Assembly: GCA_020348925.1 (NCBI GenBank)
Contig: CP070758.1
Location: forward strand, 2,842,306-2,906,305
DNA length: 64,000 nucleotides
Direction of reading: 5' to 3'
From: Gemmatimonadota bacterium
GTDB lineage: Bacteria > JBHIER01 > G020348925
Every line of letters begins with the position of its first letter. The stretch's first letter is position 1. A program made the position numbers and the translations under genes. Shown in pieces: positions 1-31,777 of the stretch. The notes beneath the pieces are model-generated. The model did not search any database and was not told the origin of the DNA. It was given only the letters and a program-made list of their open reading frames with translations.

Positions 1-1421
1 GCAACATGTTGCCATTGGTCAAGAACGAGCGAGCTCTCAGGAGTATTTGCATAACATAATGTCCCGTCGCTGTGCCTCAGTTGGAGAAGCAGACTGTGAG
101 GATGATAGGCAAGGTATGAGTCAAGGAGCTGGATCGTAATACTGTTCTTGTCAATCACCTTACCAAGTCCGAACGTCAGGAAATTTCCCCAGCCCGCGGG
201 ATTGATCCAGGCTTCCATGGTCAATGCATCTGTCAGATGCAGAGACGGTGTAGCAGGACACGAAACAGAGCTTATGACACCGTCAAAAAGAATGGCGCTT
301 TCCCCGTCGAATACACGGACATGCTCTTCACGAGTTTTAGTGTGAGAAAGCGAATCGTTCGATACTTCCAAGCTGACGGTATAGACTCCGGGTTGGTCGT
401 AAACCCAACTTGGATTCTGTTCGTAGGAATCGACCGTTCCATCTGTATCAAAATCCCAGGCCCAGGATGTGACAGGCAAATATTGAGTCGAACCATCTGT
501 GAATTGTACTGTCAGTGGTGCATGGCCTGTCTTGGATTCTGCCGGAAAATTTGCGAAGAAAGGTTTCATCGTCGGACTGAAGGTCGTGGAGAAAAGCATT
601 TCAGTAAAGAGAAGTGCATCGGGATGGATGTCAACAATCTGCGCGCTGATGCTCGGTATGTTTGGATAAATAGAGATGAAATCCGCAGCCGGTATATGAA
701 GTCCAATAATCTGTTTTGGACGAAAATGCGTCTCGATGAAAGGTTCCAGAGCGGAGTTGACCAGGAGCCAATAGGGAATAAGGGCCAGGTCTATGTCCTT
801 ATCCTGGAGATCGAAACCGTCAAAATCGTCCAGTGTGGTGTAGGCATCGTCAAGATGCAGAACTTTTTTACCGTCAATCGTCACCAGGAAACACACATTT
901 TCAAGAGTTGCATCGGGATAGAAGTGTTGGACGCGCATGATTTCTATCTCGACACCCATTCGAGTGACCGTCGTGTCCTGAAAGAGAGCGAGAGCGATCC
1001 CCTCGACTCGGTCCTCGATGGCGGCAAAGTCCGCAAATTGTAAGCTCAGCTCGTGTACGGTTTGCGCAGGGGCGATGAAATGCGCATTCTCGTTATGGAG
1101 AAGGTGCCGGCCGACGGACTGGGCATGAAAATGATCAGGATGCAAGTGCGTTGAAAGAACGAGGTCTATTGAATTATAAGGGGGGCTTGCCGTTTCGATC
1201 TTCTCCTGCTCATCGTCAGGAAGATCGACATAGTTTGGAGATCCGTCGCGATAGAGTCCGTCGATTAAGATCTGCGTTTCATGTGATGTTATTAAGACAC
1301 CTTCATTTGCAATGTAAGTGATCTCAAACTCGTTGGCGGTAGCCTGTGTTCTTGCCTCCTGTGTGAGTAAGATTCCTGAAACCATCAGGATTAACAGCAC
1401 AAAACCGACAAAAGTCTTCAT
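1..1421 (-). CDS. Secreted metallo-beta-lactamase-fold protein with PKD and LamG-like domains (3' end outside window)
   Basis: I translated this by hand: the frame is open from an ATG at 1421 to the window edge (473 codons, no stop). A GGGAGGTGG ribosome site precedes the ATG. Residues 1-21 form a signal peptide. Residues 30-290 are a metallo-beta-lactamase fold with the H-x-H-x-D-H motif at H92, H94, D96 and H97, a histidine at 166, and HLDD at 189-192 where its paralogue at 4488-7244 has HLGD. A PKD domain follows (about 295-375), then the start of a LamG-like jelly roll. The paralogue continues with thrombospondin type 3 repeats, a dockerin and a T9SS tail, so the same is expected here. 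The fold resembles UlaG/YtnP-type hydrolases; the substrate is unknown. The G-to-D change at a metal motif may alter activity. Confidence 0.85.
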   Translation of the reverse strand, partial: MKTFVGFVLLILMVSGILLTQEARTQATANEFEITYIANEGVLITSHETQILIDGLYRDGSPNYVDLPDDEQEKIETASPPYNSIDLVLSTHLHPDHFHAQSVGRHLLHNENAHFIAPAQTVHELSLQFADFAAIEDRVEGIALALFQDTTVTRMGVEIEIMRVQHFYPDATLENVCFLVTIDGKKVLHLDDAYTTLDDFDGFDLQDKDIDLALIPYWLLVNSALEPFIETHFRPKQIIGLHIPAADFISIYPNIPSISAQIVDIHPDALLFTEMLFSTTFSPTMKPFFANFPAESKTGHAPLTVQFTDGSTQYLPVTSWAWDFDTDGTVDSYEQNPSWVYDQPGVYTVSLEVSNDSLSHTKTREEHVRVFDGESAILFDGVISSVSCPATPSLHLTDALTMEAWINPAGWGNFLTFGLGKVIDKNSITIQLLDSYLAYHPHSLLLQLRHSDGTLCYANTPESSLVLDQWQHV

Positions 1422-1505
1422 GATGATCCACCTCCCTATAATTCGGAATACCGATTGAACTGGATCTGCAGCGTCCTTCGGTCTGAAGAAACCACGCTTG
1501 AAATA

Positions 1506-4436
1506 CTATTTCAGCAAAACCATCGATTTTGTCTTAGAGAAAACATCCGTCTCCATCGAGTAAAAATAAATTCCTGAGCTCACTTTCTGCCCTTGGTTGT
1601 CCGTGCCGTTCCATGTGATTTCATGATAGCCGGCTGATGTTTCGCCCTCTCTGAGCTTTTTCACAAGCTCACCCTTGATGTTGAATACGGCCAGCCGAAC
1701 ACGCCCAGACCGTGGGAGCGCAAACCGAATCGTCGTCTCAGGATTGAAAGGGTTCGGATAGTTTTGTGCCAGAGAAAACTCTCGGGGGATCCGCGCCTCG
1801 GCCTTGATCAACGCCATAAATGTTTCAAATTCATCTCTTGCAAGATACCGTTCCAACGACTCGCAAAATTCTATCACCTCCGCATTCATCACAGGCCTCG
1901 AAACCGACGGGGCGCATGCGCCAAGGCCCAGTATGACGTTGATGATACCCAGAGCATCCAGAATGTCCACACCCCCGTCACCGTTGCAGTCGGCCCGGGC
2001 CAATGGCCCTCCGACGAGAGGGCTGGAGACTAAAATGTGGTTTACGACCGCCAGCACATCCAGCACATCGATTTCCCCGTTACAATCCAGATCACCCCGC
2101 TCTACAGCACTCTGCTCCGGATTGTACGCACCGGGGCAGTTGTCCTCCACACACATATTTTCCGGATATCCAGGATCGCCGTACCCGTCACCATCGCTGT
2201 CCGTGCACGTATCGCACACGTCACCGATGCCATCACCATCACCATCCGTCTGATCCGGATTGACCTCTTCAGGACAATTGTCGCAGACATCTCCGAGGCC
2301 GTCGATATCTGTATCCTCCTGGGCAGGATTGTAGTCGCCGGGACAGTTATCCTCTGAATCGAGGACTCCGTCCTCGTCGTGATCCGCTGAAGCCGGCTCC
2401 AGATGCAGACCCTGGATCCAGGTGATTTCAAACGCTGTTCCGCCATTGCCATTTCCCGAATGGTCTGTGATGGCTGCACCGCTGCCTTCATTCAGTTGCC
2501 AGTAAACGACGAGCCCCGGTTCATTTCCCACGAGGTATGAATTCATGCCGGATAAAATTTCATCCTCTGTCCGGGTAATATTCCACAGACGGACTTCCTC
2601 CAGATTCCCCTCAAAGGCAAGATTGCCATCGGAATCATTGCCGATTACAAAATCGCTGGCGCTGTTGTCCATAAGAGGACCTGATGGTTGAGGGGATTGA
2701 GACAGAATCTGTTCGACACCATCGAGATATATCGTGATGTCACTGGTTGTTCCGTCATACATCACAGCCACGTGCTGCCAGGTATCGAGATCAATAGAAC
2801 CCTCAGGTGTGGTTGCAAGACTGAGGGAGCCACTGGCATGGGTCAGTTGAAAGGCCAGGCTGTTATCGTTGTAAGCAGGATGTGACTCTATGAGGTAGAG
2901 GGCAAACAGCTCTTTATCAAAAACTCTTCCGAAACCGAGATTGAACATTTCCCCCCAGCCAGTGGGATACATCCAAGCCTCGAAGGTCAGGGCCTCGGTA
3001 AGATTCAGAGAGGGTGCTGCCGGACACGACAGAGAGCTGTTGGAGCCATTGAACTGGAGGGCGCTCTCACCGTCGAACACCCGGATATAATCTTCGAGGA
3101 TCTGTGTATAGGTATCCGTTCCGTTTGTAACTTCCAACGAAACGGAGTAGATTCCGGGTTCGTTATACGTCCATCCCGGATTCTGCTCCTCGGAATCTAT
3201 GGTCCCATCGTTTTCGAAATCCCACGCCCAGGACGTAACGGGCTGGGGGGCACTTGACAAATCGGTGAATTGAATGGTCAGCGGTGCGTGACCTGAAGTC
3301 ACATGTGTTTGGAAATAAGCTCCGTAGAGTCTGTTCTCCCACCATGCAATTTCGTTTCTATCCATTGATGCCACCAAGATATCCACATCGCCATCGTCAT
3401 CGAAATCCAATGCGCTGGGATAACTCCCACCATGAAATTCCTCTGAAATGGAGTGCTGAGTGAAGACTCGATCCCCGGCATTTTCCCACCACCTGACAGC
3501 ACCGGCTCCTCTGGAGGCACCCAGAATATCAATATCGCCATCTAAGTCAAGATCTGCGGCATAAATCCCTCGGGCTCCCTGGAAATTTTCACCAATGAGG
3601 TGCTGTGTGAAGGATTGACTTCCTGTGTTCTCATACCACGCAACCTGTCCGATAAAACAAATTGAGCAGGCCAGGTCAATGTCACCATCATGATCGATAT
3701 CCTCGGCGTAAACGGATGTGGGCCCCTGCACACCGGCTCTCACAATATGCTCCTCGAAGACTTGGTTGCCTGTATTCTCGAACCATAAAATTTGAAAGGA
3801 TCCTGGTCCTGTTCCCACTATATCAATATCACCATCCTGATCCATATCCTTGGGATAGAGGCAGCTGGCTCCGGTCCAATTTGTCTTGAGAATATGCTCG
3901 GTGAAACTCCGATCCCCATCGTTCTCGAACCATGCAGCCTTTGCAGTCTGACATGCGGTTACGAGCAAGTCCGTATGACCATCATCATTGATGTCTTCAG
4001 CGCAAACATAATTTGGCTGTCCCCAGCCGCTTACTATCGTATGTTGGGTTATGAAGTTCTGATTTCCATCATTTTCCCACCAGGCTAACGTATCGCAGCT
4101 AAAACCTGCACTCACCACATCAACATCACCGTCGGAATCCAAATCGACCCCGCATATCCCCTTGGGACCCCTGAAACTATCGGTAATAATATGTATGGTG
4201 AATTTTCGGTTTCCATCGTTCTCCCACCAGGCGATACTATTGGCCCTCAGAGCCGAACCCAGCACATCGATGTCCTCATCACCGTCCATATCTACGGCCA
4301 CGGCATGCCAAGTATAGTTAAAGTCATTTGTGATTGTGTGCTTCGAAAAGAGAAGTTGCGGAGAACTGGAGGTGGCACACAGAACCAATAAGATTGAACT
4401 AAAACATGCGACAGAACACACCGAGAGCCTTTTCAT
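1506..4436 (-). CDS. Secreted FG-GAP/PKD/LamG/TSP3/dockerin protein with T9SS tail
   Basis: The 976-residue product is predicted to be exported and handed to type IX secretion. After a signal peptide (1-27) come seven FG-GAP/VCBS repeats with Asp-rich calcium loops such as DLDLDGDIDILG (about 40-375), a predicted seven-bladed propeller. Then follow a PKD domain (375-453), a LamG/concanavalin-like domain (455-678), thrombospondin type 3 calcium repeats (680-775), a two-repeat dockerin (777-845) and a type A sorting domain with QNYPNPFNPETTIRF (885-976) ending in MVLLK. The ATG at 4436 has a GAAAGGAGCGAC ribosome site. Its last 500 bases are nearly identical to the next gene. The domain order supports a role in surface adhesion or carbohydrate binding, but no enzyme active site is visible and the ligand is unknown. 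Confidence 0.88.
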   Translation of the reverse strand: MKRLSVCSVACFSSILLVLCATSSSPQLLFSKHTITNDFNYTWHAVAVDMDGDEDIDVLGSALRANSIAWWENDGNRKFTIHIITDSFRGPKGICGVDLDSDGDVDVVSAGFSCDTLAWWENDGNQNFITQHTIVSGWGQPNYVCAEDINDDGHTDLLVTACQTAKAAWFENDGDRSFTEHILKTNWTGASCLYPKDMDQDGDIDIVGTGPGSFQILWFENTGNQVFEEHIVRAGVQGPTSVYAEDIDHDGDIDLACSICFIGQVAWYENTGSQSFTQHLIGENFQGARGIYAADLDLDGDIDILGASRGAGAVRWWENAGDRVFTQHSISEEFHGGSYPSALDFDDDGDVDILVASMDRNEIAWWENRLYGAYFQTHVTSGHAPLTIQFTDLSSAPQPVTSWAWDFENDGTIDSEEQNPGWTYNEPGIYSVSLEVTNGTDTYTQILEDYIRVFDGESALQFNGSNSSLSCPAAPSLNLTEALTFEAWMYPTGWGEMFNLGFGRVFDKELFALYLIESHPAYNDNSLAFQLTHASGSLSLATTPEGSIDLDTWQHVAVMYDGTTSDITIYLDGVEQILSQSPQPSGPLMDNSASDFVIGNDSDGNLAFEGNLEEVRLWNITRTEDEILSGMNSYLVGNEPGLVVYWQLNEGSGAAITDHSGNGNGGTAFEITWIQGLHLEPASADHDEDGVLDSEDNCPGDYNPAQEDTDIDGLGDVCDNCPEEVNPDQTDGDGDGIGDVCDTCTDSDGDGYGDPGYPENMCVEDNCPGAYNPEQSAVERGDLDCNGEIDVLDVLAVVNHILVSSPLVGGPLARADCNGDGGVDILDALGIINVILGLGACAPSVSRPVMNAEVIEFCESLERYLARDEFETFMALIKAEARIPREFSLAQNYPNPFNPETTIRFALPRSGRVRLAVFNIKGELVKKLREGETSAGYHEITWNGTDNQGQKVSSGIYFYSMETDVFSKTKSMVLLK

Positions 4437-4487
4437 AATGTCGCTCCTTTCTCAAAAGTGAAACTTAGAGAAACGGTTCTCATAGAA

Positions 4488-7244
4488 CTATTTTAACAGT
4501 ATCATCTTTTTCACACAGTGGTAGTTTTTCGTCACCAACCTGTAAAAATAGACACCCGAGCTTACTGCCTGACCTTGCTCATCCGTGCCGTTCCATGTGA
4601 TTTCATGATAGCCGGCTGATGTTTCGCCCTCTCTGAGCTTTTTCACAAGCCCACCCGTGATATTGAATACGGCCAGCCGAACACGCCCAGACTGTGGGAG
4701 CGCAAACCGAATCGTCGTCTCAGGATTGAAAGGGTTCGGATAGTTTTGTGTCAGAGAAAACTCTCGGGGGATCCGCACCTCGGCCTTGATCAACGCCATA
4801 AATGTTTCAAATTCATCCCTTGCAAGATACCGTTCCAACGACTCGCAAAATTCTATCACCTCCGCGTTCATCACAGGCCTCGAAACCGACGGGGCGCATT
4901 CGCCAAGACCCAGTATGACGTTGATGATACCCAGAGCGTCCAGAATATCCACGCTCCCATCACCGTTGCAATCGGCCCGGTCCAAGGGCCCACCGACAAG
5001 AAGGCTGGAAGCTAAAATGTGGTTTACGATGGCCAGCACATCCAGCACATCGCTTTCACCGTTACAATCCAGATCACCCCTCTCAACTGCACCCTGCTCC
5101 GGATTGAATACATTGGGACAATTATCCTCCTCACAGGTATTGGCTTCATACCCCGGATCGCCGTACCCATCGCCATCGCCGTCCGTGCACGAATCGCACA
5201 CATCACCGAACCCATCACCGTCATCATCCTCCTGATTCAGATTTACATCATCCGGACAATTATCACAGACATCACCAACAATATCCCCATCCGCATCATC
5301 TTGATCAGGATTATAGTCATAAGGACAGTTGTCCTCAGAATCAGCCACTCCGTCCTCATCACGATCCACTGATGCCGGATTCAGATGCACACCTTCTCTC
5401 CATGTGGCATCAATCACCGTCCCGTTATTTCCAAAGCCGGAATGATCCTGTGTTATCTCCCCGCTGCCTTCGTTCATCTGCCAGTTCCCGACCAGCCCGG
5501 ACTCATTTCCCAACAAGTAGTAATCCAGATTGACAGCGACTTCCTCATCGGACCGTAGAATATTCCAGATTCGAACTTCGTCTATTATGCCATGAAAAGT
5601 TGCGCCGAGATCCGCGGAATTGCCGATGAACAAATCTTCTCCACTGTTGTTTTCGATATCGCCTGAGGGTCTCATGATGTGGCTGACGGTCTGTTCAATA
5701 CCGTTTATGTACATCGTGACAACATCTTCCCCATTGTACGTCACGGCAATATGCTGCCATTCGTCCAGGACAATTGACGCTTCTGGAGTATTCGAATAAC
5801 TTATTACACCGTCGGCGTGTGTAAGTTGGAAAACCAGACTGTGATCGTTTAAGGAAAGATAAGAATCCACGAGATACAGGGAAATATATTTTTTGTCAAG
5901 CACTCTTCCGAGTCCAAGAGTTTCAAATTCTCCCCAGCCGGAAGGATTGATCCAGGCTTCGATGGTCAATGCATCCGTGAGATTCAGGGAATGTGTGGCC
6001 GGACACGAAACATAACTATGCTCACCATCAAACAGAATAGCGCTTTCACCGTCAAATACATGGACATAATCTTCACGAATTTTAGTGTGAGAAAGCGAAT
6101 CATTCGATACTTCTAAACTCACAGTGTACATTCCAGGTTCATCGTATGTCCAACTGGGATTTTGTTCATCAGAATCGACCGTTCCATCCGTATCAAAATC
6201 CCAGGCCCAAGATGTTATGCTTAGATGTGTCGTCGAAAAATCTGTGAATTGAATCGTTGCCGGGGCATTGCCTGTTTTTAATTCTGCCTGAAAATTTGCA
6301 TAAAAAGGTTTCATAGTTGTACTAAATATTGTACTGAAAAGGTTTTCAGTGAATAGAAGCGCACTGGGGTGGATATTTTCGATTGCAGCGCTAATGACAG
6401 GCGGCTGTACGAAAGGAGAGGAATCTGAAAGAGGTAGATGTGCCGCTATAATTTGTTTTGGACGAATATGAGTGTCGATAAATGTTTTCAGATTAGAACT
6501 GATTAGGATCCAAAAGGGAAGAATTGCCACGTCAATGTCCCTTTCCTGTAAATCAAATACATCAAAATTGTTTTCCGCGGGATTTGCATCACCAAGATGC
6601 AGAATTTTTTTACCGTCAATAGTAATGAGAAATCCTACATTTTCAATTGGATCTGATGGGTCAGGTAACCAGTGATGCAGGTATAAGATTTCTATCTCAA
6701 CTCCCTCTCGAATGACAGTCGTGTCTTGATTAAAATCTGGAGTAATTCCTTCGACTCGATCCTCGATTGTAGAATAGTCCGCAAATTGTGAATGAAGCAG
6801 TTGTACGGTTTGCAAAGGACCGATGAAATACGCATTCTCGTTATGTATAAGATGCCGCCCCACAGATTGGGAGTTAAAATGATCACCATGGCCGTGCGTC
6901 GCAAGAACGATGTCTATTGAATCATAAGGCGTGGTTGCTGTTTCAAGTTTCTCAAGGTCTTCGTAAGAATGAAAGGGATAATCAGAGCCGAAATTGCGAA
7001 ACAATGCATCAATTAAAATCTGTGTTTCGTGTGAAGTAATGAGTACACCTTCATTTGCAATGTATGTGATTTCAATTGACTGAAACTCGGAATTTCGTTC
7101 CAGTGCATCACGAGAATCTGGAAATGTGGTATTTACAGGATATACTGCAGACTCATCAACGGAAGTCTGTTCTCCAGCCTCTTGTGCCAGGACAATTCCT
7201 GAGAATATTAGGAATAGCAAGATTGCATGGATAAAAGTCTTCAC
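4488..7244 (-). CDS. Secreted metallo-beta-lactamase-fold/PKD/LamG/TSP3/dockerin protein with T9SS tail
   Basis: The 918-residue product starts at a GTG behind GAAGGTGG. It has a signal peptide (1-20), then a metallo-beta-lactamase fold (about 55-300) with H117, H119, D121 and H122 in ATHGHGDHF, D219 in HLGDA and H269 in AAHLP. All the expected metal-site motifs are therefore present, and the family is likely UlaG-like. Next come PKD (315-395), LamG-like (396-618), thrombospondin type 3 repeats (621-715), dockerin (716-785) and a T9SS type A tail (828-918) with YPNPFNPETTIRF. It is a full-length paralogue of the partial gene at 1-1421, with the FG-GAP gene lying between them. A secreted hydrolase held at the surface is a reasonable inference. 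The substrate cannot be read from the sequence. Confidence 0.88.
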   Translation of the reverse strand: MKTFIHAILLFLIFSGIVLAQEAGEQTSVDESAVYPVNTTFPDSRDALERNSEFQSIEITYIANEGVLITSHETQILIDALFRNFGSDYPFHSYEDLEKLETATTPYDSIDIVLATHGHGDHFNSQSVGRHLIHNENAYFIGPLQTVQLLHSQFADYSTIEDRVEGITPDFNQDTTVIREGVEIEILYLHHWLPDPSDPIENVGFLITIDGKKILHLGDANPAENNFDVFDLQERDIDVAILPFWILISSNLKTFIDTHIRPKQIIAAHLPLSDSSPFVQPPVISAAIENIHPSALLFTENLFSTIFSTTMKPFYANFQAELKTGNAPATIQFTDFSTTHLSITSWAWDFDTDGTVDSDEQNPSWTYDEPGMYTVSLEVSNDSLSHTKIREDYVHVFDGESAILFDGEHSYVSCPATHSLNLTDALTIEAWINPSGWGEFETLGLGRVLDKKYISLYLVDSYLSLNDHSLVFQLTHADGVISYSNTPEASIVLDEWQHIAVTYNGEDVVTMYINGIEQTVSHIMRPSGDIENNSGEDLFIGNSADLGATFHGIIDEVRIWNILRSDEEVAVNLDYYLLGNESGLVGNWQMNEGSGEITQDHSGFGNNGTVIDATWREGVHLNPASVDRDEDGVADSEDNCPYDYNPDQDDADGDIVGDVCDNCPDDVNLNQEDDDGDGFGDVCDSCTDGDGDGYGDPGYEANTCEEDNCPNVFNPEQGAVERGDLDCNGESDVLDVLAIVNHILASSLLVGGPLDRADCNGDGSVDILDALGIINVILGLGECAPSVSRPVMNAEVIEFCESLERYLARDEFETFMALIKAEVRIPREFSLTQNYPNPFNPETTIRFALPQSGRVRLAVFNITGGLVKKLREGETSAGYHEITWNGTDEQGQAVSSGVYFYRLVTKNYHCVKKMILLK

Positions 7245-7329
7245 GATAATCCACCTTCATTCGAAAGTTAAAATGTGTTGATTTAGGTTTGCTGCGTGCC
7301 CTCTGACTCCAGTACATATGGTTGAAACA

Positions 7330-10300
7330 CTACTTCAAAAGGACCATTGATTTTGTCTCGCGAAAAGCTTCTGTTTTTATGGAATAGAAGTACACTCCTG
7401 AACTCACCTCTTGACCTCGTTCATCTGTGCCGTTCCAAATTACCGAATGATATCCCGCAGTTTTTTCAACGTCCACAAGCTTTCTGACACGTTCGCCCGT
7501 AATATTGTAAATTGCAAGTTGGACGTGTGAAGCTTGAGATATACTGAAGGAAATGGTTGTCTCTGGATTGAAGGGATTAGGATAGTTCTGAGAGAGATAA
7601 TACACTGCAGGAACGGACGCTTCTTTAATCAGATACATAACCCTGCCAAAGTCATCGGCTGGGAGGTAAGACGCCAACGACTTCAAAAACTCCATCACTT
7701 CAGTGGTGAGCACTGGTTTGGAGGTTCCCAATGCACATTCACCCAAACCCAGAATCACATTTATAATACCCAGAGCATCCAGAATATCCACACCCCCGTC
7801 ACCGCTGCAGTCGGCTCGGTCCAAGGGCCCACCGACAAGAAGGCTGGACGCTAAAATGTGGTTTACGACGGCCAGCACATCCAGCACATCGATTTCCCCG
7901 TTACAATCCAGATCACCCCGCTCTACAGCACTCTGCTCCGGATTGTATGCACCGGGGCAGTTGTCCTCCGCACAGACATTTTCCGGATATCCAGGATCGC
8001 CGTACCCGTCACCATCGCTGTCCGTGCACGTATCACACACATTCCCAAGACCATCGCGGTCAGCATCCGATTGATCCGAGTTGTAGTCGTCCGGACAATT
8101 GTCGCAGACATCCCCCACACCGTCACCCTCAACATCCATCTGCTCAGGATTGTATTCATCCGGACAGTTATCCTCGAAGTCAATTACCCCATCTTCGTCA
8201 CTGTCCGTTGTGATAGGATCCAGGTGAACGCCTTGTCTCCACATGGCGTCCACAACAACCCCGTCATTCCCTTTGACAGAATTGTCCACAAGGGCTCCAC
8301 CGCTCCCCTCGTTCATCCTCCAAGAGCCGACCAATCCCGTCTCATTTCCGTATGCGAAGCAATTCATATACTCCTGAATTTCTTCCGGGGTACGGACAAC
8401 ATTCCACAGGCGAACCTCATCGATGAGGCCGTCGAAGGTCCAGCCGAGATCCTCAGAGTTCCCGATGATGAAATCGTTTGTACTGTTGTCTCGAATGCTG
8501 CCTGCGGGTGGAATGGTATGGGACACCGTTTGCTCGGTACCATTGATATACATCCTGACCGCATCTTCGCCATTGTAGGTGACGGCGATGTGCTGCCACT
8601 CGTCGAGCGCAATGGACTGTTCAGGAGTGTTCGAATAACTGGCTGAATAGCTTTCGTGAATAAGCTGCAACAGGAGACTTTGCGTATTATGAGTAAGGTA
8701 GGAATCGACCAGGAAAAGCGATACATTTCTTTTTTCGATAACTTTTCCCAGACCAAAACCGGGAAATTCGCCCCAGCCGGCAGGGTTGATCCAGGCCTCG
8801 ACAGTAAAGGCATCGGTGATGTTCAGGGATGGTGTGGCCGAGCACAGCGCATAGCTGTTTATTCCATCAAACAGGAGAGCGCTCTCACCGTCAAAAACAT
8901 GAACATACTCCTCAAAGACCCGTGTTTCGGCGAGCGACCCGGAGGAGACCTCCAATGTCACTGTGTAAATTCCGGGCTCTTCGTATATCCAGCTCGGGCT
9001 CTGTTCATCCGAGTCAACGACCCCATCGTTATTGAAATCCCAGCTCCACGAGACGACGCTCCCGAGGGATAAATCCTGAAAATTTACCTCCAAAGGTGCA
9101 TGACCGGTGAGGGGTTCGGCAGCACAGTTTGGAAAAAGACTTGAGATCTTCAGGAGCCACACATCAAACCGGCCTGCTCCAAAAGAGCCCGTGTGTCCCG
9201 TAATAATGTAACTCCCGTCGCTGGCCTCACAGACGGAACTCCCCCAATCAGGTCCAGGGCCGCCAAAGATCTTACTCCATGTTTCATTTCCCTCCGCGTC
9301 CGTTTTGATGAGATAGACATCATTTCCCGTCTCAACGGACTTCGTCGCCCCACAAACAAGATAGCCACCGTCGGTCGTTTCACAGACCGACCGCCCATAG
9401 TCATAGTAAGTGCCCTCACCGAATTCTCTTCTCCACTCTTCATTTCCCTGAGCATCGGTTTTTATGAGGTAGACATCGAGCAACTCTCCGAATAGAATAT
9501 CGGTCTGCCCGGCGAGGATAAAACCTCCATCCCTGGTCTCTTTGACACAATTGACCGAATCAAAATAGTAGTGATGGAACGTCCTGGTCCACTCCTCATC
9601 CCCGTTCGCATCCGTCTTTATGAGATAGATATCCCGATCACCAAAAGTACCCTGAATATTTGAAATGGTCGAACCCGCAATCAGGAGTCCGCCATCCCGT
9701 GTCTCAATGACAGAATGAGCGAACTCGGACAAATACCCGGTGAATGTCCTTGTCCAGACAGTCCCACCGTCGGCATCCATCTTTATCACATACACGTCCT
9801 GGTTCTGCGACTCAAACGATTTCGTATAGCCACAGATCACGAAGCCGCCATCACTCGTCTCGCAGACGGATTTTCCCACATCCATATGTTCGTCACCGAA
9901 GGTACGGGACCATTCCTCGTTTCCCTCGGAATCCGTTTTGACCACATATACGTCCCGCGCGCCGGCCCCGTATGACGTCGTATATCCCACAGCAATAATT
10001 CCGCCATCGCTGGTCTGACAGGCTGAGTAGCCGTAATCCCAACCGGATCCGCCGTACGTCTTCGACCACTCCTCATTACCCTCGACATCCGTCTTCACTA
10101 GATACAGATCACAGTTTCCCGCACCATACGAGTAAGTATACCCACAGACGAGAAAGCCTCCATCGCCGGTCTCGCAGACGGACCTGCCACCCTCCAGGCT
10201 GTTGCCGCCGAAGGTTTTGGTCCACAGGGCATCATCGTGGGTAAAAACATCTCTTTTTTTCAAAACGGCTGCCCTCTCACTCTCACCTCTAGGTTTGAGG

Positions 10301-10920
10301 TTGCCGTGTAAATGTTCATGTACCCTGGCCAGGGCCTCGCAATTTTCCCAACTGAAGGAATCACCCATCATGCTGGTGACAACATTTCCATCGATGACAG
10401 GTGTTGTTCCACTCACGTATGTAGCCCCTGCGGTCGCGTACTCATTTTGGTACGTCGGACTGCCCGTTACGCGTCTGCCATCGATCACACCGGCTGCAGC
10501 TAAAACCCGCACAGCCGGACAAAATCCGGCCACGACAAGGCCCGATTGAGCTGCTTCTCCAATAAGATCCAATGCGTCCTGACTGGCTAAAAGATCCGCG
10601 CAGGCGTCATTACCTCCGCCTGACATGACTGCCACGATATCATAGTCGGCAACATCCGTAATATCGGAAACAAGGATATCCACGGTAAGGGCAGGAGCCC
10701 CAAGGGGTCCCCCATACACAGGGCACGCTGCGACCGTCTCTGTAATTCCTGCGAGTGTAACATCCCACCCGAAGAGCTCGAAGTCATCCCTATCAAGATG
10801 ATAATTGGTTCCGTAATTACTGGGTATCAAGATCAAGATATTGACATCCTGCCCGAGCGCCCCGCGGATGAACGTTACCGTTAGAAAAACACAGAGAGTT
10901 GAGATGAGCTCTTTTTTCAC
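7330..10920 (-). CDS. Secreted DJ-1/PfpI, seven-repeat propeller, PKD/LamG/TSP3/dockerin protein with T9SS tail
   Basis: I start this at the GTG at 10920 (1196 residues) because GGAAGGAGG lies just upstream and a signal peptide follows at once (VKKELISTLCVFLTVTF). An upstream start at 10977 adds 19 residues in front of it. Residues 25-190 resemble DJ-1/PfpI, with the nucleophile-like cysteine at 134 in GFCPAVRVLAAAG; the residue after the cysteine is Pro where many members have His. Residues 232-597 hold seven repeats of about 52 residues (W-[ST]-[KR]-x-F-G... SDGGFLVCGYT... DVYLIKTD), a predicted propeller. PKD, LamG-like, thrombospondin type 3, dockerin (about 1000-1063) and a T9SS tail (1107-1196) complete it. 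The catalytic role of the DJ-1 part is unproven. Confidence 0.86.
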   Translation of the reverse strand: MKKELISTLCVFLTVTFIRGALGQDVNILILIPSNYGTNYHLDRDDFELFGWDVTLAGITETVAACPVYGGPLGAPALTVDILVSDITDVADYDIVAVMSGGGNDACADLLASQDALDLIGEAAQSGLVVAGFCPAVRVLAAAGVIDGRRVTGSPTYQNEYATAGATYVSGTTPVIDGNVVTSMMGDSFSWENCEALARVHEHLHGNLKPRGESERAAVLKKRDVFTHDDALWTKTFGGNSLEGGRSVCETGDGGFLVCGYTYSYGAGNCDLYLVKTDVEGNEEWSKTYGGSGWDYGYSACQTSDGGIIAVGYTTSYGAGARDVYVVKTDSEGNEEWSRTFGDEHMDVGKSVCETSDGGFVICGYTKSFESQNQDVYVIKMDADGGTVWTRTFTGYLSEFAHSVIETRDGGLLIAGSTISNIQGTFGDRDIYLIKTDANGDEEWTRTFHHYYFDSVNCVKETRDGGFILAGQTDILFGELLDVYLIKTDAQGNEEWRREFGEGTYYDYGRSVCETTDGGYLVCGATKSVETGNDVYLIKTDAEGNETWSKIFGGPGPDWGSSVCEASDGSYIITGHTGSFGAGRFDVWLLKISSLFPNCAAEPLTGHAPLEVNFQDLSLGSVVSWSWDFNNDGVVDSDEQSPSWIYEEPGIYTVTLEVSSGSLAETRVFEEYVHVFDGESALLFDGINSYALCSATPSLNITDAFTVEAWINPAGWGEFPGFGLGKVIEKRNVSLFLVDSYLTHNTQSLLLQLIHESYSASYSNTPEQSIALDEWQHIAVTYNGEDAVRMYINGTEQTVSHTIPPAGSIRDNSTNDFIIGNSEDLGWTFDGLIDEVRLWNVVRTPEEIQEYMNCFAYGNETGLVGSWRMNEGSGGALVDNSVKGNDGVVVDAMWRQGVHLDPITTDSDEDGVIDFEDNCPDEYNPEQMDVEGDGVGDVCDNCPDDYNSDQSDADRDGLGNVCDTCTDSDGDGYGDPGYPENVCAEDNCPGAYNPEQSAVERGDLDCNGEIDVLDVLAVVNHILASSLLVGGPLDRADCSGDGGVDILDALGIINVILGLGECALGTSKPVLTTEVMEFLKSLASYLPADDFGRVMYLIKEASVPAVYYLSQNYPNPFNPETTISFSISQASHVQLAIYNITGERVRKLVDVEKTAGYHSVIWNGTDERGQEVSSGVYFYSIKTEAFRETKSMVLLK

Positions 10921-11400
10921 CTTTCCCTCCTTCCCCGTGAGGACGGACGTACCGAATGTATCCACAAAGGACTGCAACTATGCTCAGAAAATACAGATAT
11001 ATAAGATTGATTCTTCAACATCTGGGACGGTGTGCTTCTGGTTATTACAGATATTTATTTGTCTGCAAGGTTTCGGTTGCAAAACGTGTGCCACTACACA
11101 TTCCGTTAAAAGTTATAAAAAATCTTGCTTTGAGCACAACGATTTACAAGGACTCAACAGATGGGACTTGTCAGACACACCCTCCTATTCTCTCGAATGG
11201 GGGCGCACAGAATTGCACGTCTCAAGAGGAATCATTTTGCATTCCGAGGATAATTGCACGTAATCGTCTCCTTTGAAGGGTGAGAACCGTCGGGTGCAAG
11301 GCGAACCGTGCAGTTCTCATCAATTCATTCCAAAGAGGATGGGGACCGTCCGCTCAATAACATGATGTCTTCTAAGACCGCACAAGATTGTATGACTCAA
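10921..11400. other. 480-bp intergenic region with a small hairpin
   Basis: No convincing gene is seen. The right part lies downstream of the 11401-13671 gene and the left part carries the ribosome site (near 10925-10933) of the 7330-10920 gene. TGAGAAC at 11281-11287 pairs with GTTCTCA at 11313-11319 around a GC-rich loop, a possible structured RNA or terminator. There is no clear T-run, so the terminator reading is weak. The stretch could also be the degraded remnant of a lost C-terminal sorting domain, since the upstream gene lacks one, but I cannot read such a remnant. Confidence 0.4.
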
Positions 11401-13671
11401 TTAAGGTTGACACGTGCCAATCCCGAGCACGACGTTCACAATCCCCAAAGCGTCCAGTATGTCCACACTCCTGTCAGCGTTGCAGTCGGCTCGGTCCAGA
11501 GGATCACCGGCCAGTGGGGTCGAAGCTAAAATATGGTTTACGACGGCCAGAACATCGAGGACATCGATCCCGCCGTTACAGTCCACATCGCCTCTGTCGA
11601 CAGGCGCCTGATCGGGATTGTACACGTAGGGGCAATTGTCCTCCTGGCATTCGTTGGTCGGATACCCCGGATCGCCGTATCCGTCGTTGTCGGTATCCAT
11701 GCATGCATCGCACACATCACCACTGCCGTCACCGTCACCATCGACCTGATCCGGATTGGCCTCTTCAGGGCAGTTGTCGCAGACATCGCCAATGGTGTCA
11801 TCGTCCGTATCGTCCTGATCCGGATTAGGGTCATGGGGACAATTGTCCTCGAAGTCGAGAACCCCGTCCTCATCAGCATCCGTCGTCGCAGGATTGAGGT
11901 GAACCCCCTGAATCCAGGCTACATCGGTCAATGTGCCGTCATTTCCATACGTTGAATAATCCGAAATTGTTTCGCCGTTGCCCTCGTTCATCTGATAGTA
12001 GCCGACCAATCCTTGCTCCATTCCAGACAAATATGAGTCCATAGTGGCCTGGATCTCCTCCCCGGTTCGCACGATATTCCAGATTCGAACCTCATCGATG
12101 ATGCCGTCGAAGGTGAATCCGCTATTGGCATCGCTTCCTATCACGAGATCATCTGTGCCGTTATCGGCGATATCTCCCGAGGGTGACGGATTGTGTATCA
12201 GTGTCTGCTCCACGCCGTTGATGTATATTCTCATTTGGCTCGTCGTACCATCGTACGTCACGGCCACATGCTGCCATGCGTCAAGAACAAGAGATTGTTC
12301 GGGTGTTATCGAAAAACTGACGGGGCCCTGAGAGTGCGAGAGCTGAACGGCCAAGCCGCGATCGTTGAAAGCAGGATGGGATCCAATAAGCATGAGAGAG
12401 TATTTACCTTTATCGACCACCCTTCCAAATCCAATGCCCTGCACTTTTCCCCAGCCGGAGGGATTGATCCAGGCCTCGACGGTCAGTTTATCAGTACAAT
12501 TCAAGGATGGTGGGGCTCCGCACAGGGCGACGCTGTTGTCGCCATCGAACTGCAGAGCGCTCTCGCCATCGAAAACACGTATATAATCTTGTGCAGTATA
12601 TGTTCTGTTTATCGAATTGTTTGAAAAGTTCAAACTCACTGAGTAAACACCCGGTTCCATGTATGTCCATACAGGATTTTGCTCGTAGGAATCCGTTGTG
12701 CCGTCAGTATTGAAATCCCAGACCCAGGTGGTTAACGGTGGATCGTAATCTGATCGATCGGTAAAGTGGACCTCCAGTGGAGAGTGGCCTGTTAATGGTT
12801 CTGCATGCATACACGATGGAACTATTGTCACAAGATCCATCCGATTGCCGTTAAAATTTGGAACAACCACGATATTGTCTCGCTTGTTGAACCCAATATC
12901 CGCAGGGCCTTCGTGACCGCTCGAGACCACCTGACGCGGGTCGCTGAACTCGCGATCAAATCGATACACCGAGCCAGTCGACCAGGAAGAGATATATATA
13001 TTCCCCTCATCATCCTGAGTCAGGCCATCGCAAGCGGCTAAATTCATATTCGTCAAAACGGTCAGCGTGGAATCTTGCAGGTTGACAGAGAGAACGGGTG
13101 CACCGGGGCTTGACTCCGATATAACCAGCAACCGATTGTTTCTCCTATCGAACAGGATTCCGTTCGGAGAAGAGAGGCTCGCTGTAACAAAGGTCGAATA
13201 ACTCTGGTCGTTCCTCCGAACCTTGAATATTCTGTCCGTATTGTATTCCGTTACATAGAGATACCCTGAGGTATCCGACGTAATATCGTTTAAGAGTTGC
13301 ATTCCGGTGATATACAGATTGGAAATTGTTTCCCCGGTCGTCAGATCAAATCCAATCAACCCCGCATTAGGACCGGTATTGCATGCGGCATAGAGCGTGT
13401 TTCCCACTATATGCAAGCCAGCGATATTGTGGGCTCCCAAAAAATCGGTGTTGAAGTAACTCTGCACGCCGTCGTTGTCAATCTGAACCACACCTCCATC
13501 CCCCCAGTTCGATACGAGATACCGGTTATTGACCTCATCGAAGACAGCACTTTCAGGATTATTGAGCAGGTTCTGAGGGTATGTATACATCGGAGAGACT
13601 ATAAGAATCAACATCATGATTCCGATGACGACATTTCCTTTCGCTAACAATGTTACTACTGCTTTTTTCAT
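11401..13671 (-). CDS. Secreted SMP-30/NHL-like propeller with PKD/LamG/TSP3/dockerin, no T9SS tail
   Basis: The 756-residue product starts at an ATG behind GAGAGGAGG. After a long signal region (1-34) the head (about 35-290) resembles SMP-30/gluconolactonase or NHL propellers, with phrases such as [17 protein letters not shown] and [16 protein letters not shown]. The shared scaffold follows: PKD (290-370), LamG-like (372-590), thrombospondin type 3 (594-687) and dockerin (690-756). The protein ends right after the second dockerin helix (GIGTCQP) with no YPNPFNP sorting domain, unlike the three complete genes to its left. It may be anchored through the dockerin or may have lost its tail. The enzymatic status of the head is uncertain because metal ligands were not identified. 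Confidence 0.85.
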
Positions 13672-13707
13672 CTCAAACCTCCTCTCTTATGCCACAAGGT
13701 GAAACCA

Positions 13708-16263
13708 TCATCTATATTGAAAGTTACCTCCAGGCTCCAACCGTTCTGAGGCTATTGGTACACACTCGCCAATACCCAGAATCACATTAATCATACCCAA
13801 AGCATCCAAGATGTCCACACCTCCATCACCATTGCAGTCGGCTCGATCTAATGGATCACCTATTAGACGGATTGTACCTAAAATATGATTCACAACGGTA
13901 AGCACGTCCAAAACATCTATGGCGCCTTGACAGTCAATATTACCTATTTCTACTTCAGCCTGATCCGGATTGTACACCTGGGGGCAATTGTCCTCCTCGC
14001 ATTCGTTGGCAGGGAACCCGGGATCGCCGTATCCGTCCCCGTCGGTGTCCATGCACGCGTCGCATGCATCACCGCTGCCGTCATTATCGCCATCGACCTG
14101 GTCCGGGTTGACCTCTCCCGGACAGTTGTCGCAGACGTCGCCGATGGTGTCACCGTCATCGTCCTCCTGGTCCGGATTGTAGTCATTCGGACAGTTGTCC
14201 TCGAAGTCAAGAACCCCGTCCTCATCACTATCCGTTATCGCAGGATTGAGGTTGATACCCTGAATCCAGGCGACGTTAGTCAGTATCCCGATATTCCCGT
14301 GTGCCGAGAAATCCGAACTCGTTTCGCCATTGCCCTCGTTCATCTTCCAATAGCCCACCAATCCAGGCTCCATACCCGACAGGTACGAGTCCATGGTGGT
14401 CTGGATCTCCTCCCCTGTGCGCCTGATATTCCACAGGCGAACCTCATCAATGATGCCATCAAATCCGAAACTGCCGGTGACATCATTTCCGATGACCAGA
14501 TTATGAGAGCTGTTGTCTTCAATCGGACCCGAGGGCGGGATGGATTGAGTGACCACCCGCTCAATGCCATCAACGTACATTTTCACCTCATTGCCCGTGC
14601 CCCTATAGGTGACGGCCACGTGCTGCCACTGGCCGAGCGTGATGGAGGCTTCGGGACTGTTGGAATAACTGATCGTACCATCACTGTGAGTAAGCTGCAA
14701 AACCGCACTGTGGGGGTGCATCCCCAGGTACGAGTCGACGAGGTAGAGAGAGATGTGATGCTTATCGATCAATCGACCCAGGCCGAAGTTGAGGAAATTA
14801 CCCCAGCTCGAAGGATGAACCCAGGCTTCGACGGTCAGCTCATCCGTCAGGTTGAGGCTCGGGGTGGCGGAGCAGAAGGCATGGCTGCCCTGACCGGTAA
14901 ATTCGAGAGCACTCTCCCCGTCGAAGACGCGGACATAATCGTCAGAGCTCTTCGTATATTCCAACGTATCGCTCGAAATGTGGAGAGATACCGTATAGGT
15001 GCCCGGGTCTTCGTAGGTGAAGAACGGATGCTGCTCCTCGGCGTCGATGAGGCCGTCACTGTTGAAATCCCATCTCCAAACAGTGATAGGCTCCATGACA
15101 ATGGAGGCATCAGTGAATTGGACACCCAGGGGGGCATGACCTGTGATCGGATCGGCCTGAAAGTGGGCTCCGATGAGGTCGCTTTCCCACCATTCGATTC
15201 GATTGCAGTCGTTTCCGGCTCCCAGGACATCCGGATCACCGTCCCCGTCCACGTCGGCCACATAGACATCGCTGGCACCATCAAAGGCGCCCCCTGTAAC
15301 GGAGTGCTCAATGAAAAGGTGTTGACCGTTGTTTTCCCACCATTTGATATCGTCGGACGTCTCCCCGGCGCTGAGGATGTCAATGTCGCCATCATTATCC
15401 ATATCCGCCGCATACACGGAAGCGGCACATCGTAAATTGTCCGTGAGCGTATGCATGGTGAAGTTCTGGTTTCCGTTGTTCTCCCACCAGGCGACGGAGC
15501 TGCCGCAGGCCGCACCCAGAATATCGATGTCATCGTCGCCGTCCACATCCGTCGCGTACACCCAATGTGCCCAGGGAAAGGGAAAAAAGTGCTCTGTGAA
15601 GTTCTGGGCCCCGTCATTTTCCCACCAGAGGATGCCGCCGGAGGCCGTATACGATGCGCCATACACCTGAACAATACTCTGTTCGTCCTTCAGGGCATAG
15701 ATGCAGGTGCCGCGAATGCGGGGAGAAATGGCGTGGTCGGTAAAGTTCTGATTTCCGTCATTTTCGAACCAGACGAAATCCTCCTCCCAGTTCGAACATA
15801 GCACATCGATATCCAGGTCTCCATCCACATCCGTTGCATAGATCGTGTGGGGTTCACCGTAGCTGTCGGAAATCAGATGCTCGGTGAATTGACAATCTCC
15901 ATCGTTCTCCCACCATGTGACCCTGTCCGGATGAAAGGCTGCACTGACCACATCAACATCGCCATCTCCGTCGATGTCGGCAAACTCGACGGTCCGAACA
16001 GTATCGTAATCCTCGCTCAGGGCGTGCTCGATGAAGTTTTGATTGCCGTCGTTTTCCCACCACTTGACACCCTCGTCCACATATGCCCCCCCAATAACAT
16101 CCACATCTCCGTCCTGATCCAGATCGACGGCCCGCACCGTCATGGTCACGTCAAAGTTTTCTCCGATGATGTGCTCAGTGAAGGCTATTTCCATAGCCTT
16201 GACTGAGGAGGTGGTCAGGGTCACAACCAAGCTGAGAATAATACCTTGAAATATCCTGTTCAT
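13708..16263 (-). CDS. Secreted FG-GAP/PKD/LamG/TSP3/dockerin protein, truncated after dockerin
   Basis: The 851-residue product is closely related in architecture to the 1506-4436 gene. It has a signal peptide (1-23), six clear FG-GAP repeats plus a degenerate seventh at the fourth position (the DEQSIVQVYG segment) over about 25-357, PKD (361-444), LamG-like (446-671), thrombospondin type 3 (674-767) and dockerin (771-839). It then ends in a short tail, ASERLEPGGNFQYR. Paralogues with a T9SS domain continue from a similar linker (for example QAERISPEVLAYF in the 34529-37174 gene), so this looks like loss of the sorting domain just past the dockerin. The ATG at 16263 follows AAAGAGAGGGAACG. 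No catalytic residues are seen; a binding role is inferred. Confidence 0.85.
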   Translation of the reverse strand: MNRIFQGIILSLVVTLTTSSVKAMEIAFTEHIIGENFDVTMTVRAVDLDQDGDVDVIGGAYVDEGVKWWENDGNQNFIEHALSEDYDTVRTVEFADIDGDGDVDVVSAAFHPDRVTWWENDGDCQFTEHLISDSYGEPHTIYATDVDGDLDIDVLCSNWEEDFVWFENDGNQNFTDHAISPRIRGTCIYALKDEQSIVQVYGASYTASGGILWWENDGAQNFTEHFFPFPWAHWVYATDVDGDDDIDILGAACGSSVAWWENNGNQNFTMHTLTDNLRCAASVYAADMDNDGDIDILSAGETSDDIKWWENNGQHLFIEHSVTGGAFDGASDVYVADVDGDGDPDVLGAGNDCNRIEWWESDLIGAHFQADPITGHAPLGVQFTDASIVMEPITVWRWDFNSDGLIDAEEQHPFFTYEDPGTYTVSLHISSDTLEYTKSSDDYVRVFDGESALEFTGQGSHAFCSATPSLNLTDELTVEAWVHPSSWGNFLNFGLGRLIDKHHISLYLVDSYLGMHPHSAVLQLTHSDGTISYSNSPEASITLGQWQHVAVTYRGTGNEVKMYVDGIERVVTQSIPPSGPIEDNSSHNLVIGNDVTGSFGFDGIIDEVRLWNIRRTGEEIQTTMDSYLSGMEPGLVGYWKMNEGNGETSSDFSAHGNIGILTNVAWIQGINLNPAITDSDEDGVLDFEDNCPNDYNPDQEDDDGDTIGDVCDNCPGEVNPDQVDGDNDGSGDACDACMDTDGDGYGDPGFPANECEEDNCPQVYNPDQAEVEIGNIDCQGAIDVLDVLTVVNHILGTIRLIGDPLDRADCNGDGGVDILDALGMINVILGIGECVPIASERLEPGGNFQYR

Positions 16264-16441: not shown

Positions 16442-18760
16442 CTACTTGTTTGAAAATGATGACGAACATTCGCCCGTCCCGAGAACGACGTTCACAATAC
16501 CCAAGGCATCGATAATATCGATGTCTCCATCTCCGTTACAGTCCGCCGCCCAGATCTGCGAGGATGACGGTTGCATCACACCCAGAATGATATTCACGGC
16601 CGCCAACACATCCAATATGTCTGTCCCACCATCCTGATTGATGTCCCCCCGGCTGGGAACGTAGCTGAACCACTGGAGTGCATTCCTCAACAATGTCCCT
16701 CGAACCTCATCATCATGTCCAGTCATGGCTCGAATACGCGCAAGCTCCAGGGCGAAATAGACAATTTTGTAAGCCCCATCGTACTTGATAGCAGCAGCTT
16801 CGCCAGAAATTTGATAGGTAAGTACCGGACTCGCTCCTTCCCGCGGGGCAATAACGCTGGGAGAGCTTTGATTCTGGTCCATGGGGAGAAAGGTAAAACC
16901 GCCGGAGATCGGATCGCCTGCAACTCCATACAAAAACGTCTCCTCATTGGAATCATTGATATACTCGGCATGGAGGTAATTCGCATAGAAAGCCGCGTCA
17001 GTTGCTGAACCATCCTCGACCAGATCGTACCCGATGTTCGATCCGGCTATCAGCAGATTTCCTCCCCCATCCAAAAATCCGGCTACTGCGGACTGCTCCT
17101 CGCCGGTCAACGTACTCTCCCGGTCATCCCCCGTAAACCAGACAACGGCCTCGTACTCCAGGAGCGTCTCCGTCATCGCCCCACCAGACAGCCACACATC
17201 CCATACAATCGGATAGATCTCCTTCGTCCTCAAAGCTTCCACGTAGACTTCCTCATACGCCATGCCACCATCATCATCCACCAGCAGAACCGTTGTGGTC
17301 CCGATGATGAGCTCGAAGCTCGCGGTCGCTTCATAACCGCCGTCTGCCGAAATATCCAGATGAAATAGAGTCGGATGCGCAGCAGTCCCAGAACCGACGG
17401 AGAAAGAAAAGGGATCGTCCTCGTTATCGGCGCTCCCATCTCTGGGCAGGTCAGAGAAATTTGCGGTCCCTGTTATAATCTGGACATCCGGATCATCCGC
17501 AGTGAGCGTAGCCGAGACCCCTGTGGCATCTAACCGCGAATTGCTGAAGATCACGATGAGATCGACCGTCTCTCCCCCATCGGCCCGACCATTGTTATTC
17601 CCCTGGCTGTCATCGATTCTGTATGCGGAGAACCGTATCAATGGAGCATCGAAGAGAGAATATACCCGTGCTCCCATATCCGCCCTCGTGCCATCCGGGT
17701 CCAAGGGACTCTCAGGGTCGCCGGAATCGATACACGGGGAATTCTGGGAGAGGTTATAGTCGGCGTCCTCGAAGCGGGGATCGGCCTCAATATTCCCAAC
17801 TCCGGGATAGCCGCCCTCAATATCACTGTATATGATATTCACGTCACCCGCTATCTGCCCCCCCTGGATCTGGGTATTTCCCCAGATGATATTATTACGC
17901 GCAGTTATGGTGGTCACCAAGCCAAATATGGAGATGGCCCCTCCGTTGGTGGCCGAGGAGTTTTCAACAATGGTGTTATTCTCAATGACAATCGGTGCCG
18001 GGCCATTTCCGATCACCCACTATGCACCACCCCCATAGCTCTGTCCGGCCGTATTTTTGCACATAATGTTTCCCCGAATCCTACCTCCCGAATAATCGGT
18101 GACCATCCCGGCCCCGTAAAGGGCAATATTAGATGCGATAACATTATTGAGAATAAGGGGATTGCCATAGTAACAGAGCAGCCCGCCACCCTGGGCACCT
18201 TCGACACCGCTCATATTTGTCACCTCGTTATTGATAATGATGTTGTCCCGAATGGTGGGAGAGGATTTATAGGTCAAAATACCACCCCCCGCACGAAATG
18301 TCATGTGAGCATACAGATCGTCATGCCACCTCGTGCCACGGCCGCCAGTGAGTGTAAACCCTTGTAACACAGCAGAGGAATCTTCCCCGGAGCACATGAC
18401 CACGCAACTGGCCGAATCGGGGTTCGTGGGACTGCTGCCATCGATGATCGTCGTTTCGACGAAATTGGCATCTCCCGTAGTCACGAAATGGCTGGCAACT
18501 ACAATATTTTTACCGATAAAGTTTACATTTTCAACATACGTACCGGGAGCGACCAAAACAGTATCGCCATCCGCAGCCGCTGCAATTCCACTTTGGATCG
18601 TGGGCCGATCATCAGGAACATGAATCACCGTTCCCAGAACATTCGTGTTCAGGAGTAAAAGTACCGACACAAAACCAATGACATTTTTGGAAACCTGACA
18701 CGCATAAGCGTTCATACAGATCCCAACTCGACGCGCACTTCCCACAAGAATCTTTCTCAT
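16442..18760 (-). pseudogene. Beta-helix/dockerin surface protein interrupted by an in-frame TAG
   Basis: Two open segments, 18760-18020 (246 residues) and 18019-16442, lie in the same frame and are split by one TAG codon at 18022-18020. Across the stop the translation reads QSYGGGA-stop-WVIGNG. The intact paralogues at 31778-34411 and 34529-37174 read FGGGGVWLAGDG and FGGGGIWLYSVG at the same place, so a codon for a small hydrophobic residue became TAG. No frameshift is needed. The first part has a signal peptide and the start of a right-handed beta-helix. The second holds the rest of the helix, a CARDB-like domain, a glutamine-amidotransferase-like fold (TTVLLVDDDGGMAYE) and a dockerin, ending without a T9SS tail. 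It is a probable pseudogene unless the amber codon is read through. The ATG at 18760 has a strong AAAGGAGG site. Confidence 0.82.
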
Positions 18761-24890: not shown

Positions 24891-24973
24891 GAAATACTTC
24901 TCCCGATTGGCACTCATAACATCCTTATAACAATGAGCAACTCCGAGTGAGAGGCACTGTGTAAAATGAAGGG

Positions 24974-29461: not shown

Positions 29462-31579
<2,118 letters not shown>

Positions 31580-31758: not shown

Positions 31759-31777
31759 TTTCGTGAGGGGGAGGTCA

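What the first reader, a model, noticed from the sequence alone, without database searches (positions are those of the whole stretch)
1..16263. One constant C-terminal scaffold with interchangeable N-terminal heads
Six adjacent minus-strand genes share the order PKD, LamG-like, thrombospondin type 3, dockerin (the first is seen only to LamG), but their heads differ completely: metallo-beta-lactamase fold twice, FG-GAP propeller twice, DJ-1 plus propeller, SMP-30-like propeller. Hydrolase-like and binding heads are displayed on the same stalk. A head-swapping display cassette of this kind, at one locus, is the best candidate here for an undescribed system.
Basis: partly seen in the sequence, partly recalled or inferred. 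Interest (0 to 1): 0.75.

Follow-up and report, generated by a model that had tools for sequence, protein, structure and literature searches.

The report
Surface proteins sharing docking tails
Six neighbouring genes encode secreted proteins with different working ends but the same kind of docking end; they are not a private swapping device at one spot but six of about 29 such genes scattered through a genome that carries an unusually large cohesin-dockerin surface-assembly system coupled to type IX secretion.

Summary
Six adjacent minus-strand genes share PKD-LamG-TSP3-dockerin behind different heads: metallo-beta-lactamase x2, FG-GAP x2, DJ-1+propeller, SMP-30-like.

The scaffold occurs in 29 ORFs (26 full length) at 13 places in the genome, behind at least 13 head types. 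The six scaffolds of this locus are not one clade (AU p 7e-73). The "constant stalk" is two evolutionary units. PKD-LamG mostly travels with the head. TSP3-dockerin-tail follows the locus, with gene-conversion tracts of 90-98% identity between neighbours. A few re-pairings exist (gene 5). In another phylum related heads sit on PKD-LamG without a dockerin, so the docking end looks like an add-on.

Context: at least 148 dockerins, at least 73 cohesins (including multi-cohesin, T9SS-tailed scaffoldins), SprA, PorV and at least 150 T9SS tails. Best reading: components of a very large, cellulosome-like but apparently non-cellulolytic surface complex exported by T9SS, a new variant of a known kind. 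Cohesin-dockerin binding is untested.

The parts
1..1421 (-). Gene A1 (runs on to window -855): MBL head (708-1325), PKD (315-548), start of LamG; TSP3 and dockerin lie beyond the window edge; no T9SS tail
1506..4436 (-). Gene A2: FG-GAP head (3303-4364), PKD (3081-3299), LamG (2556-3050), TSP3 (about 2127-2387), dockerin (1929-2096), T9SS sorting tail (1521-1760)
4488..7244 (-). Gene A3: MBL head (6432-7073; HxHxDH motif kept), PKD (6060-6272), LamG (5535-6029), TSP3 (about 5109-5366), dockerin (4911-5078), T9SS tail (4500-4742)
7330..10977 (-). Gene A4: DJ-1/PfpI domain (10354-10695) plus propeller (about 9148-10242), PKD (8926-9123), LamG (8374-8862), TSP3 (about 7948-8205), dockerin (7750-7917), T9SS tail (7348-7584)
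11401..13671 (-). Gene A5: SGL propeller head (12949-13293 best stretch), PKD (12574-12798), LamG (12049-12543), TSP3 (about 11617-11883), dockerin (11437-11592); no tail; scaffold is sister of FG-GAP gene C2 elsewhere (re-paired head)
13708..16263 (-). Gene A6: FG-GAP head (15169-16191), PKD (14926-15168), LamG (14401-14874), TSP3 (about 13969-14226), dockerin (13777-13926); no tail
1548..1847 (.). Gene-conversion tract, copy in A2 (93% over 300 nt to 4530-4829)
4530..4829 (.). Gene-conversion tract, copy in A3
16442..18016 (-). Next gene: dockerin behind another head, without PKD, LamG or TSP3
22482..37174 (-). Further dockerin proteins of the window, with or without TSP3 and tail, with other heads (22482-24995, 24974-27358, 29462-31663, 31778-34411, 34529-37174)

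Best explanation
The six genes encode surface components of a large cohesin-dockerin assembly. Each protein is made with a secretion signal; those with the tail leave the cell through the T9SS. The TSP3 segment is a calcium-binding spacer, and the two-repeat dockerin plugs into cohesins on T9SS-exported scaffoldins encoded elsewhere in the genome, so that hydrolase-like and propeller heads are gathered at the cell surface, with PKD and LamG as an auxiliary spacer/binding pair. Evolution: head + PKD + LamG is an older unit, copied about the genome as whole genes and seen in another phylum without a dockerin; TSP3 + dockerin (+ tail) is a docking and export end that was added and that neighbouring genes keep alike by short gene conversion; head replacement happens but is occasional. 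Shown: architectures, copy numbers, tree conflicts, conversion tracts, presence of cohesins and T9SS parts. Inferred: the export route of each protein, cohesin binding, direction of the gain of the dockerin, and the function of the heads.
For: Dockerins: at least 148 hits over cut-off. Cohesins: 73 over cut-off against at most 11 in 59 other genomes; multi-cohesin ORFs with T9SS tails; a cohesin matches solved cohesins. T9SS: SprA E 1.1e-44, PorV family with 13 or more proteins, at least 150 sorting tails. Dispersed scaffold copies: 26 full length. PKD-LamG follows head (12 label changes, least 10), TSP3-dockerin follows locus (6 changes against 10). Same-locus pairs of different head are more alike in third positions in dockerin (49.9 against 39.8%, p 0.001), TSP3 (p 0.01) and tail (p 0.02), not in PKD or LamG (p 0.32, 0.31). 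Tracts of 93-98% between A2, A3 and A4. Other phylum: FG-GAP or propeller + PKD + LamG + weak tail, no dockerin.
Against: No binding data; some dockerin-like modules outside cellulosomes may not bind cohesins. Dockerin hits of the PDB are weak (E 0.017). Tail-less genes 1, 5 and 6 have no explained way across the outer membrane. The other phylum's six PKD-LamG segments form one clade in spite of two head types, so PKD-LamG does not always travel with the head. Gain of TSP3-dockerin rests on one outside phylum; loss there is not excluded.
Confidence: 0.62

Rival explanations
1. A dedicated head-swapping display cassette at this locus: one scaffold, heads exchanged in place by recombination.
For: Six adjacent genes, four head folds, some head-scaffold conflict: A5/C2 100/99 and FG-GAP not one clade.
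Against: Scaffolds of the locus are not one clade (p 6.6e-73); copies are genome-wide; heads correlate with PKD-LamG; no recombinase or inverted repeats found.
Confidence: 0.06
2. Independently secreted adhesins and enzymes whose dockerin-like end acts only as a calcium-binding stabiliser or C-terminal cap, without cohesin docking.
For: Dockerin-like modules occur outside cellulosomes (Peer et al. 2009 is cited to that effect in PMC8542988); many heads are not carbohydrate-active; no binding evidence.
Against: The same genome holds 73 cohesins, several in multi-cohesin T9SS-tailed proteins, far above 59 other genomes; an abundance of both partners is hard to explain without pairing.
Confidence: 0.22
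3. The mosaic pattern (shared tails, re-paired heads) is partly an assembly artefact of repeats in a metagenome-type assembly.
For: The 'single contig' is scaffolded with 100-N gaps, several next to scaffold copies; two ORFs run through or up to gaps (s377, s489).
Against: No N run lies between window -12087 and 64000. Tracts are 90-98% identical, not 100%. Another phylum shows the same head-PKD-LamG joins.
Confidence: 0.05

Closest known systems
Cellulosome-like complex proposed for Candidatus Stygibacter (Cloacimonadota), PMC8542988
   Same: C-terminal dockerins on secreted proteins, a multi-cohesin scaffoldin with a T9SS-type C-terminal domain, Gram-negative uncultured lineage
   Different: There a few dockerin enzymes (GH18, GH57, peptidases) and one scaffoldin; here at least 148 dockerins and 73 cohesins, mostly propeller and hydrolase heads, and many dockerin proteins carry the T9SS tail themselves
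Clostridial and ruminococcal cellulosomes (e.g. Pseudobacteroides cellulosolvens, 78 cohesins, PMC5590126)
   Same: Numbers of cohesins and dockerins; one docking end behind many heads
   Different: No plant-cell-wall glycoside hydrolase over cut-off among about 38 dockerin proteins scanned, apart from one LanC-like alpha/alpha barrel with weaker GH88/GH127 matches; T9SS instead of Gram-positive anchoring
FG-GAP/propeller-PKD-LamG proteins of the phylum of G030 (four genomes)
   Same: Same order of head, PKD and LamG; match to scaffold positions 1-309 at E 1e-103 to 1e-111
   Different: No TSP3, no dockerin; only a weak T9SS-like end below Pfam's cut-off
T9SS type A sorting-domain cargo proteins (TIGR04183)
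   Same: Genes 2-4 end in this domain over its cut-off; SprA and PorV are encoded
   Different: Genes 1, 5 and 6 lack it

Membership tests
Dockerin type I proteins (PF00404) | Two F-hand calcium-binding repeats, profile match over cut-off | tested here: met
   29.7-37.7 bits against 22.9 in genes 2-6; both repeats visible in all six sequences, with position 5 of repeat 1 changed to Q in A6
Cellulosome / cohesin-dockerin complex | Multi-cohesin scaffoldins in the same genome | tested here: met
   73 cohesins over cut-off; ORFs with 5, 4, 3, 3 and 2 cohesins, four of the five with a T9SS-type tail
Cellulosome / cohesin-dockerin complex | Dockerin-borne glycoside hydrolases for plant cell wall | tested here: not met
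   None found among about 38 dockerin proteins scanned, a sample and not the whole genome; hence not filed as a cellulosome
Cellulosome / cohesin-dockerin complex | High-affinity cohesin-dockerin binding | not testable with these tools
   needs protein binding assay
T9SS cargo | C-terminal sorting domain (TIGR04183) over cut-off | tested here: met
   Genes 2, 3 and 4 only: 30.8, 35.8, 37.4 bits against 23; genes 1, 5 and 6 do not have it
T9SS cargo | T9SS translocon and PorV in the genome | tested here: met
   SprA_N E 1.1e-44; PorV family up to 264.6 bits
Locus-specific cassette / diversity-generating system | Scaffolds of the locus more closely related to each other than to copies elsewhere | tested here: not met
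   One clade rejected, p-AU 6.6e-73
Locus-specific cassette / diversity-generating system | Recombinase, transposase or recombination sites at the locus | tested here: not met
   None among Pfam-scanned neighbours; no inverted repeats of 60 nt or more in window 1-18100

The most novel reading that the evidence does not exclude
A T9SS-coupled 'docked surfaceome': a bacterium of a phylum with no other held genome has fitted a TSP3-dockerin end onto scores of unrelated surface proteins, gathers them on T9SS-exported multi-cohesin scaffoldins for a purpose other than cellulose breakdown, and keeps the docking end uniform among neighbouring genes by gene conversion while the heads diverge. Tail-less dockerin proteins might leave the cell bound to tailed scaffoldins.
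Probability: 0.3. Interest if true: 0.65.

Novelty: new variant of a known kind. Interest (0 to 1): 0.42.

Why it matters
If true, cohesin-dockerin assembly at the scale of the largest cellulosomes exists outside known cellulose degraders, joined to a different secretion route. It would make testable what such complexes do when their heads are propellers, peptidases and hydrolases rather than cellulases, and whether gene conversion maintains a common docking specificity. As a head-swapping device at one locus it is not supported.

Tried and rejected
Head-swap cassette at one locus: rejected by trees, dispersal and lack of recombination machinery. Clusters A and B each as one locally made family: rejected (A p 6.6e-73, B p 2e-5; the test of cluster C did not finish). 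Decayed tails behind tail-less genes: no convincing remnant in 700 nt downstream. Zixibacteria hit L084 as a full scaffold homologue: rejected on reading; it has TSP3 arrays and PKD repeats but not the PKD-LamG-TSP3-dockerin order. Peer et al. 2009 is not held. No paper holds both 'dockerin' and 'Zixibacteria'; none on dockerin gene conversion was found. FG-GAP heads of the two phyla: one clade of the outside heads is not rejected (p 0.18), so no head exchange between phyla is claimed. A strict pattern count of F-hands over 74 dockerins (22 matched) was too rigid to be informative and is not used. No structure prediction was run; the domain assignments did not need it.
Full report
OBSERVATION. 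The six ORFs exist as described. Pfam gives metallo-beta-lactamase heads in genes 1 and 3, FG-GAP in 2 and 6, DJ-1/PfpI followed by a propeller in 4, SGL in 5, then PKD, Laminin_G_3 and Dockerin_1. Gene 1 was completed from the genome (the window is G000:C1:2842306-2906305): 758 aa, ending in TSP3-dockerin. TSP3 is weak by Pfam in several genes, but gene 5's scaffold matches thrombospondin-2/COMP repeats (down to 2.9e-26).

HOW FAR IT SPREADS. A profile of the scaffold (12 copies, 59-71% identical to the first) finds 26 full-length copies in the genome: six here (A), six about 60 kb away (B, 2917501-2939474), three full plus one partial at 4.30 Mb (C), two full plus two partial at 1.49 Mb (D), and nine single places. 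About 17 further proteins have TSP3-dockerin alone, and many more the dockerin alone. The 29 scaffold ORFs carry at least 13 head types: FG-GAP x9 (plus a divergent FG-GAP head in D1), DJ-1+propeller x3, transglutaminase-like x3, MBL x2, two kinds of S41 peptidase x2 each, three esterases, SGL, PD40, a penicillin-acylase-like head (by inspection only) and one with a MAM-type domain.

HEAD VERSUS SCAFFOLD. On the scaffold tree the head label needs 13 changes (least possible 11; shuffled mean 19.4, none of 200 as low), so heads and scaffolds are mostly inherited together. But FG-GAP scaffolds as one clade are rejected (p 8.9e-5), A5_SGL is sister to C2_FGGAP at 100/99, and clusters A and B as clades are rejected (p 6.6e-73 and 2e-5). 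Splitting the scaffold resolves this. In PKD-LamG the head label needs 12 changes (least 10) and the locus label 10. In TSP3-dockerin the head label needs 15 (21 of 200 shuffles as low, so no clear signal) and the locus label only 6. At DNA level, same-locus pairs with different heads exceed other pairs in third-position identity in the dockerin (49.9 against 39.8%, p 0.001), TSP3 (p 0.01) and tail (p 0.02), but not in PKD (p 0.32) or LamG (p 0.31). Tracts are visible: A2/A3 tail 95-98%, A2/A4 start of dockerin 97%, B4/B6 94-95% in parts of TSP3 and tail, and A2/A3 93% over 300 nt. Caveats: the permutations treat pairs that share genes as units, p-values are not corrected for the number of segments, and all this is from one genome. 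Reading: whole genes move and duplicate with head + PKD + LamG; the docking/export end is evened out among neighbours by gene conversion; occasional re-pairing happens.

OUTSIDE THIS GENOME. No held genome shares the phylum (all are 'same domain'). The closest PKD-LamG relatives are in four genomes of one other phylum (G030, G059-G061): five with FG-GAP heads and one with the propeller that in gene 4 follows the DJ-1 domain (37-39% identical to A4 and s088 over about 376 aa). All end in a T9SS-like tail below Pfam's cut-off in the four scanned, and none has TSP3 or dockerin; G030 has no dockerin at all. So head + PKD + LamG exists without docking, which suggests that TSP3-dockerin was added in the lineage studied, though loss elsewhere is not excluded. 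That phylum's six PKD-LamG segments form one clade in spite of two head types, so re-pairing or homogenisation occurred at that scale too.

MACHINERY. The genome has 73 cohesin hits over cut-off, against at most 11 in 59 other genomes. Five cohesin ORFs were read: 5 cohesins + dockerin + tail; 4 + tail; 3 + tail; 3 + TSP3; 2 + PKD + tail. One cohesin finds solved cohesins in the PDB (2xdh, 1.7e-4). SprA, 13 or more PorV-family proteins and at least 150 sorting tails show a T9SS with many substrates. In about 0.56 Mb read, chosen around scaffold and cohesin loci and so not a random sample, 67 ORFs have a dockerin by my profile: 33 with a tail, 32 ending at the dockerin, 2 internal.

FUNCTION. 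Most likely these are surface proteins docked on T9SS-exported scaffoldins. The MBL heads keep the metal motif (THLHPDH and THGHGDH; TM1162-type hydrolases) and the DJ-1 head keeps the cysteine that aligns with DJ-1 homologues, so catalysis is possible; substrates are unknown. Export of tail-less members is unexplained; riding on a tailed scaffoldin is a guess.

KNOWN OR NEW. Cohesin-dockerin complexes with a T9SS-type domain on the scaffoldin were proposed for Candidatus Stygibacter (PMC8542988). Cohesin numbers like these are known from the largest cellulosomes (78 in Pseudobacteroides cellulosolvens, PMC5590126). A 2024 survey of cellulosome displayers (PMC11557425) speaks, in the one passage read, of Bacillota and a planctomycete relative. 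I file this as a new variant of a known kind: cellulosome-like, not a cellulosome, since plant-cell-wall glycoside hydrolases were not found in about 38 dockerin proteins scanned and binding is untested.

Noticed in passing
window 44336-62146 (+): A second run of dockerin proteins on the plus strand with FG-GAP or PD40 propeller heads and mostly weak dockerins (several just under Pfam's cut-off), plus an S9 peptidase and a CBM9-like protein.
   Followed up: partly
window 22482-24995 (-): One protein joins a class C-type beta-lactamase fold (PF00144), TSP3, dockerin and an M23 peptidase domain.
   Followed up: no
L012:7000-7300 (window coordinates about 91000-91300): The cluster B copy of the DJ-1+propeller gene is split in two ORFs by a single in-frame stop codon; the frame reads on as propeller repeat. 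Pseudogene, sequencing error or a real split is open.
   Followed up: partly
window 64000 edge; L161, L163-L166, L168-L170: The one-contig genome is scaffolded: runs of 100 N lie next to several scaffold copies (one directly after the window's end) and one run of 3528 N near 5023295. ORFs s377 and s489 look chimeric at such gaps (glycogen phosphorylase and guanylate kinase starts).
   Followed up: partly
L167:9989-11707 and L169:8590-10995: Dockerin-bearing proteins with a Porphyromonas-type peptidyl-arginine deiminase domain and with a LanC-like barrel.
   Followed up: no
G000 genome-wide: No held genome of the same phylum; 13 or more PorV-family proteins, more than one T9SS shuttle would suggest.
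   Followed up: no
L172:7100-12742, L173:9733-13458, L174:6677-11794: Cohesins in scaffoldin-like ORFs alternate with HYDIN/ASH-type Ig domains, a spacer that I did not look for in known scaffoldins.
   Followed up: no
L170:10084-12738 and L168:8688-12254: InhA-type MAM domains sit between head and PKD in the transglutaminase-like group and in s489.
   Followed up: no
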